DNA from: Nitrosospira sp. Nsp11
Lineage (GTDB): Bacteria > Pseudomonadota > Gammaproteobacteria > Burkholderiales > Nitrosomonadaceae
Length of the DNA: 64,000 bases
Assembly (NCBI RefSeq): GCF_900142705.1
Contig: NZ_FRBV01000004.1
Coordinates: 62,001 to 126,000 of the forward strand
Direction: 5' to 3'
Shown here: positions 2,673 to 15,436 of the stretch, piece by piece
Position numbering within the stretch: position 1 is the first letter of the stretch
Layout of the letters: every line of letters starts with the position of its first letter
The notes under the pieces: model-generated
Told to the model about the DNA's origin: nothing
Databases searched by the model: none
Seen by the model: only the letters and a program-made list of their open reading frames with translations
Made by a program: the position numbers and the translations under genes

Positions 2673-3620
2673 TTGCAACAGAGCCTTGCATGCAGGAAAA
2701 GCATTGTCGTGAACGATAAGGAACCTATTCGGAACCGTGAGAAATTGGTTACGCTACGAGAAGACACAGTGCGATTTCGTGAAGACGCCGTCCATTTACG
2801 CGAAGATGCTGCCGTCTCGCGCGAGCAGATAATTTGCACGGCGAATACGGAACGGGAAGCGTCTGATGGTCATCTGGTTTTTGTGCGGGAAGCGAACGCA
2901 CAACTGGTCATCTCTGGAATTGAGGCTGGGCGAGCTAGTCAGCTGAAGGACGAGTTTCTTGCGATGATCTCCCATGAACTCAAAACTCCCTTGAGTGTCA
3001 TCCTGGGATGGTCTCAGCTCATCCTGGGGGGAAAGCTAAAGCAAGACGATATTCATAAAGGCATGCAAGCCATCGAGCGTAGCGCTCGCGCCCAAAACAA
3101 ACTCATTGAAGATCTTCTCGAAATGAGCAGTATGATTTCTGGCAAAGTACGACTTGACATGCAGCAACTGGATATAGTCGGTCTGGTGGGCGCAACGGTT
3201 GAATCAATGAGGCCAACCGCGGAAACCAAAAGAATTATTCTGCAAGAAACAACTGATCGGGAAGCCGGGTGGATATCGGGTGACGCTAACAGGATGCAGC
3301 AGGTTTTCTGGAACCTTCTTTCCAACGCAATAAAATTCACGCCTACAGGCGGTAGAATAGAAATTGGTATGAAGCAGTCGGGCTCATTTTTGGAAATCAG
3401 AATCGATGACTCGGGTCTGGGAATATCAGCCGAGTTTCTGCCCTATGTGTTTGAGCGCTTCCTGCAGGCTGAAACTTCACTTGCGCGACACTACAAAGGA
3501 CTCGGCTTGGGCCTTGCTATCGTCAAACAGCTGGTGGAACTTCATGGTGGGATGGTCCGAGCAGAAAGTCCAGGGATTAATAAAGGGGCTTCATTTATTG
3601 TGCAACTGCCGCTGCCGTAA
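2673..3620 (+). CDS. Soluble sensor histidine kinase with heptad-repeat N-terminus
   Basis: A 315-residue cytoplasmic histidine kinase. The HisKA phosphoacceptor is in SHELKTPL (His101), the N box in WNLLSNAIKFTP (about 213-224), the G1 box in DDSGLGIS, the F box in FERF and the G2 box in GLGLGLAIV (about 277-284); all key residues are present. There is no transmembrane segment, PAS or receiver domain. Instead residues 27-52 form four seven-residue repeats of the type LREDAVH, followed by EANAQLVISGIEA, nearly the same as in the GGDEF-EAL protein encoded at 11300-13066. GTG 2709 is an alternative start with an AGGA upstream. No response regulator gene is adjacent, so its partner is unknown. 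Confidence 0.9.
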   Translation: MQQSLACRKSIVVNDKEPIRNREKLVTLREDTVRFREDAVHLREDAAVSREQIICTANTEREASDGHLVFVREANAQLVISGIEAGRASQLKDEFLAMISHELKTPLSVILGWSQLILGGKLKQDDIHKGMQAIERSARAQNKLIEDLLEMSSMISGKVRLDMQQLDIVGLVGATVESMRPTAETKRIILQETTDREAGWISGDANRMQQVFWNLLSNAIKFTPTGGRIEIGMKQSGSFLEIRIDDSGLGISAEFLPYVFERFLQAETSLARHYKGLGLGLAIVKQLVELHGGMVRAESPGINKGASFIVQLPLP

Positions 3621-11299: not shown

Positions 11300-13066
11300 T
11301 TAAATGTGAGAGGCAGGTTTTATCCCGGTTTGCAGCAAGGTGGCGAGTGCCTCTGCCGTTATCGGATGGCTGAAATAGTAGCCTTGGCCCTCATCGCAAT
11401 GTTTAGCCAGAAGAAATGTGCGCTGTTCCGGTGTTTCCACACCCTCCGCGATGACGCGAAGCTTGAGGCTTTTGCCCATGTTGATTACGGCGCTGACAAT
11501 GGTGGCATCGTCCGGGCTGCTGGTAATTCGGCTCACGAACGACTGGTCGATCTTCAGGGTATCAATCGGAAACTGCCTCAAATAGCTGAGGCTGGAATAG
11601 CCCGTGCCAAAGTCATCGATCGCGAGCTTGACGCCCAGGTCTGCAAGTCCATGCAGTATGGAATCAGTAAACTCGGCATCTCGCATAAGGACGCTTTCCG
11701 TCAGTTCGAGCTCCAGATAGCGCGGTTCCAAGCCTGTATCGTCAAGCGTCGCGCGTATATTTTCCAGAAAATCCGTGGCGTTGAACTCGAGGGCAGAGGT
11801 ATTGACTGCAATGGTGATCGGCCGCAAGCCAATCCGTATCCAGGCTTGGGCCTGAAGACAGGCTTCGCGCAGAACCCATCGGCCAATGGGCAGGATCAGC
11901 CCGCAGTCTTCGGCGATGGGTAAGAACTGCAATGGCGGCATCAGCCCTCGTTCCGGATGCTGCCAGCGAATAAGCGCCTCGACACCGACAATCAAGTTGC
12001 TGTGAAGATTTATTTTCGGCTGATAATGCAGCACGAATTCGCGCCGTTCCAGTGCTCGGCGCAGACCGACCTCGATCGACTGACGCTGAACGGCCCGAAT
12101 ATTCATGGCCTGCTCAAAGAATTTGTAATTATCGCGTCCATTTTCCTTGGCGTGGTACATCGCCGTGTCCGCACTTTTGGTCAGGGCTTCCGCATCCCGC
12201 CCGTCGTCCGGGTAAATGCTGATGCCGATACTTACCGACACGTGGAGCTCAAGCTCACCGATGTGATGTGGAACAGCTAGCGCAGTAAGTATTTTTTGCG
12301 CACTGATAGCCACGTCGTCCGGATGCTTGATAGAAGAAAGCAGCACCACAAATTCGTCGCCACCCTGTCGACTGACGGTATCCGAATGGCGCATACAACG
12401 CACCAGGCGGCGTGCAACCGACTGTAGCAGCTGGTCGCCAACGGCATGCCCCAGGGAATCGTTGATGTGTTTAAATCGATCCAGATCCATGAACAGCATA
12501 GCAAATTGCCGACCCTGGCGGCGGGCCAGCTCAATCGCGTGGCTAAGCCGGTCCTGCAGGAGCATTCGATTAGGTAAACCGGTAAGAACATCATGGTGGG
12601 CCAGATGATCCAGCTGAGCTTTAGCAGTTTCGACTTGCTGGGTCATTTTATGGGCTTCAATTCCAGAGATGACCAGCTGTGCGTTCGCGTCCTGCATCAT
12701 CCTCAGGCGATCTTCGGATCTTTTTGCCTGTACCACATCTGCGGCGCGAATTACCCCCTCACGCAAGGTGGCTTCGCCTTCTCGTGCATGGGCTTCCACT
12801 TCCCGTATTTGCGCTGCTTCCTCGCGCAGATGGGCCGCATCTTCGCGTAAGTCGGCGGCTTTTTCACGCAAATTCGCGGCATCTTCCCGTGCGGTAGCGG
12901 ATTTTTCGCGCCGTAAAGCAGCCGCCTCATCGTCAACGACAGCGCTTTCCCTGCGTGGGAGATCCTTTTCCCGAAAAACTGTCAACCTGTCTTTGTGCGG
13001 GTTTGAAAAGCCTCGTTGATCCGATTCATCGGGATCAGAAGCACTGTCATTGTCATTTCTGCTCAT
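11300..13066 (-). CDS. GGDEF-EAL cyclic-di-GMP signalling protein with heptad-repeat N-terminus
   Basis: A 588-residue cytoplasmic protein. Residues 57-105 are seven consecutive seven-residue repeats of the AADLREDA type. Next come DANAQLVISGIEA (126-138), then GGDEF (intact GGDEF at 235-239, inhibitory site RHSD at 226-229) and EAL (EAL at 363-365, DDFGTG at 484-489, LKID and AEGVET present). Both diguanylate cyclase and phosphodiesterase activities look possible. I start at ATG 13066, seven bases after the KaiC-like stop codon; a longer frame to 13306 would overlap that gene deeply. It is the last gene of a three-gene unit and shares its N-terminus with the kinase at 2673. Confidence 0.93.
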   Translation of the reverse strand: MSRNDNDSASDPDESDQRGFSNPHKDRLTVFREKDLPRRESAVVDDEAAALRREKSATAREDAANLREKAADLREDAAHLREEAAQIREVEAHAREGEATLREGVIRAADVVQAKRSEDRLRMMQDANAQLVISGIEAHKMTQQVETAKAQLDHLAHHDVLTGLPNRMLLQDRLSHAIELARRQGRQFAMLFMDLDRFKHINDSLGHAVGDQLLQSVARRLVRCMRHSDTVSRQGGDEFVVLLSSIKHPDDVAISAQKILTALAVPHHIGELELHVSVSIGISIYPDDGRDAEALTKSADTAMYHAKENGRDNYKFFEQAMNIRAVQRQSIEVGLRRALERREFVLHYQPKINLHSNLIVGVEALIRWQHPERGLMPPLQFLPIAEDCGLILPIGRWVLREACLQAQAWIRIGLRPITIAVNTSALEFNATDFLENIRATLDDTGLEPRYLELELTESVLMRDAEFTDSILHGLADLGVKLAIDDFGTGYSSLSYLRQFPIDTLKIDQSFVSRITSSPDDATIVSAVINMGKSLKLRVIAEGVETPEQRTFLLAKHCDEGQGYYFSHPITAEALATLLQTGIKPASHI

Positions 13067-13073
13067 TGCCACT

Positions 13074-14543
13074 TTAATCACGTGATCCCGAGCCAGGGCT
13101 GAGGGTTGGCTTGCCTGACAGGATGCCGGCATACCCGGACAAGGCCTCACCGATAATGATGCCTTCGCCGGTAATATCGAACAATCGAACGTCCTTGCTG
13201 TGATCGCTGCCACGGACTTTAACGATCGAGAAGACGCGCTTGAGCTGACCTTCGAGTTCGACATAGCGCTGCACGATAATTGCGTCTGCGAGAAAGGCAC
13301 TTCCAAATGGACTGAAGCGCAAGTCAGTGTAACGATCTTCCAATTCAGAGGTCATTAATATGGTCACGCCCATGTTGGTAAGCTGGGCAATCATCCTGTA
13401 CAGCGATCCGCGAAAATCTTCGCTAAACTCGGGCGCCAGCGCCAGCTCAAACCCGGACAAGGAGTCAATGACAAGCCGCTTTGCCTGCATTTGATTAATC
13501 ATTCCAATCAAATCCTGCAAGGTTTCGTCAATCGACAAATCCAGGGAACGTGTGTTAATCACCCCAACCTGCCCACTCTTCACCAAGGCAGACAGTTTGT
13601 TGCTCAGCAATTGGCTTGGGCTCTTCTCAAACGCCGCAATTACACCGGGCTCCCCTCTGCGCGCACCTTCGCTGAGAAATTCCGTCGCCAATATTGTTTT
13701 TCCAGAGCCGGACGGCCCGACTACGAGTAGCGAATATCCCGTTGGCAAGCCGCCACCCAGCATTTCATCGAGGCCAGGTATTCCCAGGGAAATACGTTTC
13801 TCGCTGATGGATACCGACTCAACCGCTGTGCCTTGTTCGATAATCGCACGGGGAAAAACTTCAATTCCTTTATTACTGATTCGAAACGTATGCAAACCCA
13901 GTGCCTGAGCTTGGCCGCGCATTTTGATTACTTGCATCTTGCGTACCATTGAATTCCGATGCATATTCTGCGAAAGCCAAAGAATGCCATCAGCCACTGT
14001 AAAGACGGGGCTTGACTCTGATTCCGGCGCCAGATATTCGCCGATTAAAAATGTGGTTGCCTGCCAGGTCGTCATTTGCATGCCCAGTTGCTGGATAAAC
14101 CGCTGCAGTTCGAACACGCTCTGTTCCCCCTGCCTTGCTGCCTGCACCACCGATCGAAACGAATCTACAAATACGAAGCTGGGAGTAAAGTCTTTCACTT
14201 CTTCCGCAATGCGCACTAATACGCGGTCAAAATTTCCCTCCATGAGATCGGGAGACAGGTTGATGAAGCGAATGGATTCCGCAATTTTATCAACTTCAAA
14301 AAACGGAAACTGCTGTTGATAACGAAGCATCTTTAAAGCAGGCTCGCCGAGTACCGTGAAGAACAGCGCCCGATTATTCGGCGTTGCCAACGAAAACATG
14401 ATCTGATGAGCGAGGGTCGTTTTTCCACTTCCCGGCGAACCTGCTATCAGGTTAAACGAAAATTCCGGCAGGCCTCCGCCCAACAGGCTGTCCAGGCCCG
14501 GTACGCCCGTTGCCAGGCGACGTATGCTCAGCTTTTCACTCAT
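13074..14543 (-). CDS. Double-domain KaiC/RadA-like ATPase
   Basis: A 489-residue protein made of two KaiC domains. Each begins with the same signature (GVPGLDSLLGGGLP at 13-26; GIPGLDEMLGGGLP at 254-267), followed by Walker A GSPGSGKT (35-42) and GPSGSGKT (276-283) and Walker B strands FVFVD and LVID. In the second domain the usual acidic pair after the beta strand reads FEKSP, so one Glu is Lys. There is no KaiA or KaiB gene nearby, so a clock role is not implied; such proteins often work with signalling partners. It overlaps the upstream gene by 8 bases and is followed closely by the GGDEF-EAL gene. Confidence 0.9.
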   Translation of the reverse strand: MSEKLSIRRLATGVPGLDSLLGGGLPEFSFNLIAGSPGSGKTTLAHQIMFSLATPNNRALFFTVLGEPALKMLRYQQQFPFFEVDKIAESIRFINLSPDLMEGNFDRVLVRIAEEVKDFTPSFVFVDSFRSVVQAARQGEQSVFELQRFIQQLGMQMTTWQATTFLIGEYLAPESESSPVFTVADGILWLSQNMHRNSMVRKMQVIKMRGQAQALGLHTFRISNKGIEVFPRAIIEQGTAVESVSISEKRISLGIPGLDEMLGGGLPTGYSLLVVGPSGSGKTILATEFLSEGARRGEPGVIAAFEKSPSQLLSNKLSALVKSGQVGVINTRSLDLSIDETLQDLIGMINQMQAKRLVIDSLSGFELALAPEFSEDFRGSLYRMIAQLTNMGVTILMTSELEDRYTDLRFSPFGSAFLADAIIVQRYVELEGQLKRVFSIVKVRGSDHSKDVRLFDITGEGIIIGEALSGYAGILSGKPTLSPGSGSRD

Positions 14544-14958
14544 TTTTGAACTCCTTGCCAGTCTCGTTCGGAATTTCCGCGCCCCAAGCCAAACTTAGAA
14601 TACGGTTGATTAACTGCTCGCCTATTAACGAGGCCAGAATGTCGGTTAAAGTGATCAATAACAGGCTGTTTGCTTCGCGGACTTGCAGAGGCGATTGTCC
14701 TTCAAAGCTCCTTTTTAATTCTGCGAACCGGTGCTCAGCCTGTGGTGGCAGGGGGATGGTTGGGAGCCCAGGAAATGTTGACCGGCTCAGGAATACGCTT
14801 CTCACGTAAAGGGCATTGAAACCATCTTCACCTACAATCGAAATGATTTGGGTCGCCAATTGTGCCCATAATACAATCGCGGCATCTGCAACTTTCTCCG
14901 TTTGCTTTGCCATCAGGCTTTTAATTAACTGATGTCGCGGCAGGTCACAAGTTTCCAT
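14536..14958 (-). CDS. Unknown protein, first gene of the KaiC-like/GGDEF-EAL unit
   Basis: A 140-residue protein that I do not recognise. It looks all-helical and soluble with a hydrophobic C-terminal helix (LLLITLTDILASLIGEQLI, near residues 98-116). Its end overlaps the KaiC-like gene by eight bases, which implies coupled translation and a shared task. An internal ATG at 14913 is a possible start; neither has a strong ribosome site. It might be a regulator or partner of the ATPase, but this is inference from position only. Confidence 0.7.
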   Translation of the reverse strand: METCDLPRHQLIKSLMAKQTEKVADAAIVLWAQLATQIISIVGEDGFNALYVRSVFLSRSTFPGLPTIPLPPQAEHRFAELKRSFEGQSPLQVREANSLLLITLTDILASLIGEQLINRILSLAWGAEIPNETGKEFKNE

Positions 14959-15360: not shown

Positions 15361-15436
15361 TGGTGCCGACACCAAGAGTCGAACTCGGGACCTTCTGATT
15401 ACAAATCAGCTGCTCTACCAACTGAGCTATGCCGGC
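15361..15436 (-). tRNA. tRNA-Thr (anticodon TGT)
   Basis: Read on the minus strand, a 76-base cloverleaf: acceptor GCCGGCA pairs with TGTCGGC followed by A and encoded CCA, D arm GCTCAGTTGGTAGAGC, anticodon stem CTGAT/ATCAG with TGT in the loop, and TTCGA in the T loop. Confidence 0.96.

What the first reader, a model, noticed from the sequence alone, without database searches (positions are those of the whole stretch)
11300..14958. Operon of an unknown protein, a double KaiC-like ATPase and a GGDEF-EAL protein
The three genes overlap or nearly touch (8-base overlap, then a 7-base gap), so they are probably made together. A double-domain KaiC without KaiA or KaiB, coupled to a cyclic-di-GMP enzyme and an unrecognised 140-residue protein, suggests an ATP-driven switch or timer controlling cyclic-di-GMP. 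The second KaiC domain has a Lys in place of one of the usual Glu pair (FEKSP), so its catalysis may differ.
Basis: partly seen in the sequence, partly recalled or inferred. Interest (0 to 1): 0.65.

Follow-up and report, generated by a model that had tools for sequence, protein, structure and literature searches.

The report
KaiC switch with exchangeable signalling partners
In a soil ammonia-oxidising bacterium, a relative of the cyanobacterial clock protein KaiC is encoded together with a small unnamed helical protein and usually beside a cyclic-di-GMP enzyme or a histidine kinase that carries a shared helix, which suggests a plug-in molecular switch rather than a clock.

Summary
The three genes are real and packed as described. 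What is conserved, though, is a pair: the 140-residue protein (SMALL) and the double KaiC. In the 80 closest named relatives SMALL lies just upstream in 79, with a remnant in the 80th; 77 of 79 overlap KaiC's start. The third gene is exchangeable: GGDEF-EAL, histidine kinase, or both. These partners share a 35-residue helix ('LQQANAHLVIATIEAQKLAEQV') before the catalytic domain, found in 73 of 80 loci and only in kinases and GGDEF-EAL proteins. Among 200 genomes of the order, 7 of 8 with the helix also have SMALL (10 of 200 do); with a corrected helix model this may be 6 of 7. The Lys of FEKSP is the rule in near relatives (81 of 81), and the first domain too has lost one Glu (GE, 81 of 81). 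S431/T432-type phosphosites are absent, and no KaiB was found in 23 genomes of the genus, so a KaiABC-type clock is not supported. SMALL matches no Pfam or NCBIfam family and is predicted all-helical without a clear PDB match. I read this as a KaiC-type ATPase plus adaptor controlling kinases and c-di-GMP enzymes through the shared helix. Binding, ATP sensing and direction of control are inferred.

The parts
14536..14958 (-). SMALL: 140-aa protein, predicted all-helical, first gene, overlaps kaiC by 8 bases
   Evidence: no family; upstream of KaiC in 79 of 80 loci; AlphaFold2 mean pLDDT 84, six helices, no strand
13074..14543 (-). double-domain KaiC-like ATPase (489 aa) of a separate subfamily
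   Evidence: PF06745 2.4e-71; one search split from other KaiC 100/99; residue conservation
14343..14348 (-). first-domain G66-E67, in place of the Glu-Glu pair of clock KaiC
   Evidence: alignment; GE in 81 of 81
13623..13628 (-). second-domain E306-K307, in place of the Glu-Glu pair
   Evidence: alignment; EK in 81 of 81; K, Q, D or E at the second place in more distant members
11300..13066 (-). GGDEF-EAL protein (588 aa); GGDEF, RxxD, EALIRW, DDFGTGYSS and LKIDQSF motifs all present
12767..12979 (-). N-terminal coil with 'LREDAA'-type repeats, similar to the coil of the kinase at 2673-3620
   Evidence: (43 of 122 aligned positions identical, E 6e-15, made without low-complexity filter, so the E-value is flattered by the repeats)
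12614..12718 (-). shared signalling helix 'SEDRLRMMQDANAQLVISGIEAHKMTQQVETAKAQ' just before GGDEF
2673..3620 (+). separate histidine kinase (HisKA + HATPase_c, 315 aa) with a similar coil and a match to the first 22 positions of the helix; a possible second partner
   Evidence: (helix match at 2862-2927, E 3.6e-5); its relative in L048 (70% identical) directly follows KaiC
15361..15436 (-). tRNA-Thr next to the operon; the stretch beyond it is variable among relatives

Best explanation
SMALL and the double KaiC form one regulatory unit, made in coupled amounts. KaiC assembles as a nucleotide-dependent ring whose state follows ATP/ADP or slow hydrolysis. With SMALL as adaptor (or as the site where a signal enters) it contacts the conserved ANxxLV helix that lies between the N-terminal coil and the catalytic domain of a partner enzyme, and so changes that enzyme's dimer geometry and activity. 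In this operon the partner is the GGDEF-EAL protein, so the output is a change in cyclic-di-GMP; a possible second partner is the histidine kinase at 2673-3620. Shown by calls: the near-invariant SMALL-KaiC pair, the separate KaiC clade, the shared helix in two unrelated enzyme classes, its position next to KaiC, its co-occurrence with SMALL, the loss of phosphosites, the absence of KaiB in the genus. Inferred: coupled translation, ring assembly, physical contact, which surface is used, the signal sensed, and whether c-di-GMP rises or falls.
For: SMALL is just upstream of KaiC on the same strand in 79 of 80 loci, a remnant in the 80th; 77 of 79 overlap KaiC's aligned start by 1-16 bases. The helix model finds 92 of 3,031 ORFs, 48 kinases and 44 GGDEF-EAL, in 73 of 80 loci (same with a corrected model), 91 of 92 on KaiC's strand. 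Of 55 loci that gave no row to the model, 48 have it. Signalling ORFs of 900 bases or more: within 2.6 kb 90 of 102 carry it, farther 0 of 11 (cut-off chosen after seeing the distances; at 1.5 kb 75 of 81 against 15 of 32). In 200 genomes of the order: SMALL in 10, helix in 8, both in 7 (Fisher 4e-10). In the genus: coil query found in 7 of 8 genomes with this KaiC and 1 of 15 without, that one marginal. A SMALL-GGDEF fusion exists in G447 (1.9e-19), without the helix and with no KaiC of this subfamily found. Walker A and B and the KxR residues of both domains are kept.
Against: No interaction was modelled or measured. The helix model was built mostly from these same loci. Two of its 29 typed rows were not verbatim; without them G144, a weak hit at 1.1e-5, may drop below the cut (estimate from the score change), leaving 6 of 7 (Fisher 2e-8). 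G173 has the helix without SMALL or this KaiC; G026, G140 and G171 have SMALL without a helix hit. Twelve of 102 near signalling ORFs lack the helix (10 kinases, 2 GGDEF-only). Seven of 80 loci have no helix partner: two (L065, L076) end just after KaiC, two Nitrosospira copies (L079, L089) have another kinase/regulator pair upstream, three (L058, L103, L121) are unexplained. Coiled linkers are common in kinases and GGDEF proteins (recalled). Genomes are related, so the Fisher values overstate independence.
Confidence: 0.57

Rival explanations
1. SMALL is a KaiC-only partner (regulator, chaperone or assembly factor of the ring), and the shared helix is an ordinary signalling coil that came along with the neighbouring enzymes. 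KaiC contacts the enzymes some other way, for example through the LREDAA coil.
For: SMALL-KaiC linkage is tighter than the linkage of either to any partner. One genome has the helix without SMALL/KaiC (G173). In fused GGDEF-kinase partners the helix stands before each catalytic part, as a linker would.
Against: Sequence-level conservation across two enzyme classes, its concentration near KaiC and co-occurrence with SMALL in 7 of 8 genomes are more than a generic coil needs. The SMALL-GGDEF fusion ties SMALL directly to an output enzyme.
Confidence: 0.25
2. A KaiABC-like clock or hourglass timer that sets the phase of cyclic-di-GMP.
For: KaiC homology and double-domain layout; a kaiC-kinase pair without kaiA and kaiB was proposed as an hourglass in Ramlibacter (PMC3164672, passages).
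Against: No KaiB in 23 of 23 genomes of the genus; phosphosite equivalents are Ala and Phe; one Glu lost from each catalytic pair. [quoted passage not shown]
Confidence: 0.06
3. Signalling in the opposite direction: the partner kinase or c-di-GMP enzyme is the input and KaiC-SMALL is the output that acts on other cell components.
For: Bacterial kaiC genes often lie near signalling genes (PMC3164672 passages); partners vary while SMALL-KaiC does not, which also fits a constant effector fed by varied inputs.
Against: At E 1e-4 Pfam shows no sensor domain in P0001 or in the six helix-bearing partners scanned, only catalytic and, in two of the six, receiver domains, so they seem to receive their signal from elsewhere. 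A receiver domain could itself be an input.
Confidence: 0.08
4. No functional link: an accessory gene cassette that travels together.
For: Patchy presence (8 of 23 genomes of the genus), position next to tRNA-Thr where a relative holds an integrase-like gene, presence on plasmids.
Against: Gene overlap in 77 of 79 loci, the shared helix in partners, and dN/dS well below 1 for all three genes.
Confidence: 0.04

Closest known systems
KaiC of the cyanobacterial KaiABC clock (Synechococcus elongatus; PDB 1tf7 and relatives)
   Same: Two tandem RecA-type KaiC domains with Walker A/B and KxR residues; PDB KaiC chains are the best matches.
   Different: No KaiB found in the genus, no phosphosites at S431/T432 equivalents, G-E and E-K in place of the two Glu pairs, linked to SMALL.
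Non-cyanobacterial kaiC genes near histidine kinases or GGDEF/EAL genes (PMC3164672, 2011; passages read)
   Same: kaiC beside kinase or GGDEF/EAL genes; their third group has at most one conserved phosphosite with few exceptions and varied arrangements. This operon would plausibly fall there.
   Different: The passages read do not mention an invariant small upstream gene, a shared helix, or exchange of partners on one KaiC clade. Their figures and supplements were not seen.
KaiC-like ATPases as signal-transduction hubs in archaea (Makarova, Galperin and Koonin 2017, recalled; not held)
   Same: The idea of KaiC-type ATPases serving as hubs for varied signalling partners (recalled).
   Different: Recalled as concerning archaea; this is a proteobacterial subfamily with its own companion protein. 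Not compared by sequence.
SasA / KaiB-type KaiC-binding modules
   Same: A separate small domain that could couple KaiC to a kinase.
   Different: KaiB and the SasA sensor are thioredoxin-like (recalled); SMALL is predicted all-helical.
BcsE, c-di-GMP sensor with a predicted RecA/KaiC-like domain (PMC7439463; passages)
   Same: RecA/KaiC-like fold tied to c-di-GMP signalling.
   Different: BcsE is one protein whose ATPase-like domain is judged unable to bind ATP; here the Walker motifs are intact and the enzyme is separate.

Membership tests
KaiC ATPase family (PF06745) | Tandem KaiC domains with Walker A and Walker B | tested here: met
   (2.4e-71, two stretches); GxPGxGKTT, GPxGxGK(T/S), D127 and D360 in 81 of 81
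KaiABC-type clock | KaiB partner | tested here: not met
   PF07689: 0 of 23 genomes of the genus; the control search rings in S. elongatus
KaiABC-type clock | Autophosphorylation sites equivalent to S431/T432 | tested here: not met
   A416 in 81 of 81, F417 in 80 of 81 (Ile in one) at those columns
KaiABC-type clock | Catalytic Glu-Glu pair in both domains | tested here: not met
   GE and EK in 81 of 81; in distant members the first pair stays GE, the second is EK, EQ, ED or EE
KaiABC-type clock | KaiA partner | not tested
   no search for KaiA was made
KaiB / SasA sensor fold | Thioredoxin-like alpha/beta fold (recalled) | tested here: not met
   SMALL model has six helices and no strand, mean pLDDT 84
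KaiA C-terminal domain or another known helical fold | Structural match to a solved fold | tested here: inconclusive
   Foldseek: no PDB match at E <= 0.001; best second-look Z 3.9
Bifunctional GGDEF-EAL c-di-GMP enzymes | GGDEF and EAL domains with intact catalytic motifs | tested here: met
   motifs read; in 37 partner proteins GGDEF 37 of 37, EAL(I/V/L)RW 35 of 37, DDFGxG(Y/F)SS 31 of 37. Activity not testable here
KaiC genes near kinases or GGDEF/EAL genes (groups of PMC3164672) | kaiC close to a kinase or GGDEF/EAL gene | tested here: met
   placement in their tree was not tested

The most novel reading that the evidence does not exclude
A new class of two-part cytoplasmic receiver: a KaiC-type ATPase ring plus an orphan helical adaptor that can govern any enzyme, histidine kinase or c-di-GMP enzyme, that carries the ANxxLV helix. 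It would be a socket-and-plug system spread by horizontal transfer across Beta-, Gamma- and Alphaproteobacteria, letting the cell's energy state steer several outputs at once.
Probability: 0.32. Interest if true: 0.8.

Novelty: new variant of a known kind. Interest (0 to 1): 0.6.

Why it matters
KaiC homologs outside cyanobacteria often lie next to signalling genes, and what they do is largely open. Here one KaiC clade comes with a constant, unnamed companion protein and a short shared helix in its enzymes, which gives concrete, testable contact points. If right, it would show how a clock-type ATPase can work without a clock, as a plug-in controller of cyclic-di-GMP and phosphorelay signalling, and it would give a function to a protein family annotated only as hypothetical in the four plasmid records looked at.

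Tried and rejected
Timer/clock reading: rejected on phosphosites, lost Glu pairs and absence of KaiB. KaiA was not searched.

'Lys in FEKSP makes this KaiC odd': rejected, it is the rule in near relatives (81 of 81).

SMALL as KaiB or a known fold: model all-helical, no clear PDB match; weak sequence hits (designed protein EXTD-3 at 0.018, heme oxygenase at 0.84; scattered Pfam hits to 1-3 of 86 members, best 0.001) taken as chance. A missing match does not show a new fold.

tRNA 3' end as an attachment site: no second copy of the last 12-25 bases in the window, so a tRNA-flanked island is not shown.

Promoter and terminator scans were at the level of chance.

Folding the SMALL-GGDEF fusion: the alignment made for it placed SMALL rows across the GGDEF domain, so it was dropped. 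The fusion's linker does not match the helix model.

Wider searches with SMALL: 7 of 369 in the class and 4 of 398 in the phylum twice, own genome included in each. They scored only part of the first-look candidates in many genomes, so they are weak as negatives. A tblastn of the Paracoccus SMALL against plasmids found only itself.

Helix model: on re-checking, 2 of the 29 typed rows were not verbatim. A 27-row model gives the same 92 ORFs in the same 73 loci and still hits all ten ORFs that one search had found, but more weakly for G005 and G144. could not be repeated (cap reached); with the corrected model G144 may fall just short, giving 6 of 7 instead of 7 of 8. I lowered confidence by 0.01 for this.

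The 2.6 kb limit was set after the distances had been seen; other limits are.

Literature: no described system of this kind was found in the searches (open-access papers only; results seen as listings and abstract starts).
Full report
WHAT IS THERE. The window holds three minus-strand genes: SMALL 14958-14536 (140 aa), a double KaiC 14543-13074 (489 aa) and a GGDEF-EAL protein 13066-11300 (588 aa). SMALL and KaiC overlap by 8 bases; KaiC and the GGDEF-EAL gene are 7 bases apart. Pfam and NCBIfam find no family for SMALL. Two contigs of genomes given as the same genus as the window's (G210, G213) have exactly the lengths of named Nitrosospira contigs (sp. Nsp2 and sp. Nsp14), so the host is most likely a Nitrosospira. 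The genome has one SMALL. Against the sister genome G207 at the same locus dN/dS is 0.29 for SMALL, 0.09 for KaiC and 0.12 for GGDEF-EAL; SMALL changes fastest (78% identity against 97% and 96%).

THE CORE IS A PAIR. In 100 genomes of the family, a close KaiC (65% identity or more) occurs in 8 of 23 genomes of the genus, own included, and 1 of 77 others, with two copies in two genomes. In all 11 copies, window included, SMALL lies just upstream; the GGDEF-EAL gene directly follows KaiC in 6 of 11. They include Nitrotoga, Methylobacter, Crenothrix, Thiobacillus, Gallionella, Rhodoferax, Janthinobacterium and Massilia. SMALL was found upstream on the same strand in 79 of 80; the 80th (L062) has a remnant, and in two more (L069, L073) the frame is broken. 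Measured to the codon aligned with the window KaiC's first Met, 77 of 79 overlap (45 by 8 bases, 20 by 4), one lies 4 bases apart, and the frame-broken L073 gives 171. More distant members keep the pair, including Caballeronia and Paracoccus plasmids, where SMALL is annotated 'hypothetical protein'. Among 200 genomes of the order 10 have SMALL. In the nine besides the window's, a KaiC of this subfamily lies next to it in eight (G160 has SMALL split around an inserted transposase-like ORF); in G026 SMALL lies at a contig end and no such KaiC was found.

THE PARTNERS SHARE A HELIX. Genes next to the pair differ, but the kinases and GGDEF-EAL proteins carry one sequence just before the catalytic domain, consensus LQQANxxLVIATIEAQxLxEQVxxAK. 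A profile of it hits 92 of 3,031 ORFs of 100 aa or more in the 80 loci: 48 kinases and 44 GGDEF-EAL, in 73 loci, 91 on KaiC's strand. By locus: 29 kinase only, 25 GGDEF-EAL only, 19 both, 7 neither. Of the seven, two end just after KaiC (L065, L076), two are Nitrosospira copies with a different kinase/regulator pair upstream (L079, L089), and three (L058, L103, L121) are unexplained. The profile came from 29 typed segments, most from these loci; 2 of the 29 were not verbatim, and a 27-row profile gives the same 92 ORFs and 73 loci. Of the 55 loci that gave no row, 48 have the helix. Among signalling ORFs of 900 bases or more, within 2.6 kb 44 of 44 GGDEF-EAL, 46 of 56 kinases and 0 of 2 GGDEF-only carry it; farther away 0 of 11. 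That limit was set after seeing the distances; at 1.5 kb it is 75 of 81 against 15 of 32.

CO-OCCURRENCE. In 200 genomes of the order the helix occurs in 8 and SMALL in 10, both in 7 (Fisher 4e-10); of the rows in the model only the window's own comes from these genomes. With the corrected model G144 may fall just short, leaving 6 of 7 (Fisher 2e-8). The exception, G173, has the helix in a PAS/GAF-like multi-domain GGDEF-EAL protein (labels recalled) and no KaiC of this subfamily. G026, G140 and G171 have SMALL but no helix hit. In the genus, the N-terminal 151 residues of the GGDEF-EAL protein find a match in 7 of 8 genomes with this KaiC and 1 of 15 without, the latter at E 6e-4 (Fisher 2.5e-4). 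Relatedness makes all these values too small.

A POSSIBLE SECOND PARTNER. The histidine kinase at 2673-3620 on the other strand has a similar coil (without low-complexity filter) and part of the helix. In G201 (L048) its relative, 70% identical, directly follows KaiC and has a receiver domain, which the window's kinase lacks.

A NATURAL FUSION. In G447 a 364-aa protein joins SMALL (residues 28-125, 1.9e-19 with a profile made without it) to GGDEF. It lacks the helix, and no KaiC of this subfamily was found in that genome (best match 8e-42; placed outside the clade). This single case ties SMALL to an output enzyme.

THE KaiC. Thirteen subfamily members split from nine other KaiC proteins with 100/99 support (which warns of long branches among the others). 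Across 81 sequences (the window and the 80 loci) Walker A and the Walker B Asp of both domains are invariant and the KxR residues are kept in at least 97%; the first domain has G-E and the second E-K where clock KaiC has E-E; the positions of S431 and T432 are Ala (81 of 81) and Phe (80 of 81). In distant members the Lys may be Gln, Asp or, in two that fall in a separate early branch, Glu. No KaiB was found in 23 genomes of the genus. So ATP binding is likely, hydrolysis is uncertain, and a phosphorylation clock is unlikely.

SMALL. AlphaFold2 with 86 sequences gives six helices, mean pLDDT 84, pTM 0.79. Foldseek finds no PDB match at E 0.001 or better; the best second-look Z is 3.9.

GENOMIC SETTING. 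In the five relatives looked at that lack the operon at this place (L183-L187) tRNA-Thr lies just after sspA or sspB, and in four the uppS-ppsA block or ppsA follows further on; the stretch between is variable, and L183 holds an integrase-like gene (gene names and 'integrase' recalled). The operon is therefore accessory.

MECHANISM. The best-supported reading is a KaiC ring with SMALL as adaptor or sensor acting through the helix on exchangeable enzymes. GGDEF and EAL motifs are intact in the window protein; in 37 partners GGDEF and the RxxD site are present in 37, EAL(I/V/L)RW in 35, DDFGxG(Y/F)SS in 31, so either reaction could be controlled. No contact or activity was tested.

LITERATURE. 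PMC3164672 (2011; passages) already reported kaiC beside kinases or GGDEF/EAL genes, with a group poor in phosphosites. PMC5520375 (2017; passages) covers conserved motifs of cyanobacterial KaiC, including the Glu pairs. [quoted passage not shown] PMC7439463 (passages) describes BcsE. None of the passages read describes SMALL or the helix.

Noticed in passing
L147:1429-2523 / L149:7546-8640 (G447): SMALL domain fused to a GGDEF domain, downstream of two same-strand genes; the first (L149:5851-6591) has Crp-like DNA-binding and cyclic-nucleotide-binding domains, the second was not scanned. No KaiC of this subfamily found in that genome.
   Followed up: partly
window 2673-3620: Separate histidine kinase with a LREDAA coil like that of the GGDEF-EAL protein, about 8 kb away on the other strand.
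   Followed up: partly
window 15361-15436 and L183:1190-2437: tRNA-Thr next to the operon; in relative G204 the same spot holds an integrase-like gene (by recall) and unrelated genes, so it looks like an insertion hotspot.
   Followed up: partly
L052:6183-9051 (G160): SMALL gene split around an inserted transposase-like ORF (IS66-type by recall), while full-length KaiC and a kinase partner follow.
   Followed up: no
L048:10494-12665 (G201): A second, truncated SMALL followed by a GGDEF-EAL gene in two overlapping frames, just after the SMALL-KaiC-kinase operon.
   Followed up: no
L056:9663-11354 and L163:1-1647: GGDEF-kinase fusion proteins in which the shared helix stands twice, once before each catalytic part.
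   Followed up: partly
L043, L045, L047: Nitrosospira copies where SMALL-KaiC follows a kinase and a response regulator instead of a helix partner; in L043 these were scanned as HisKA_3 kinase and LuxR-type regulator.
   Followed up: no
L130: A second, oppositely oriented SMALL-KaiC pair downstream of the first module in an Acidithiobacillus MAG.
   Followed up: no
L202:173-4338: Lichenicola plasmid: diguanylate cyclase, kinase, a distant KaiC (about 32% identical) and a response regulator in a row, with a kinase rather than a small gene directly upstream of KaiC.
   Followed up: no
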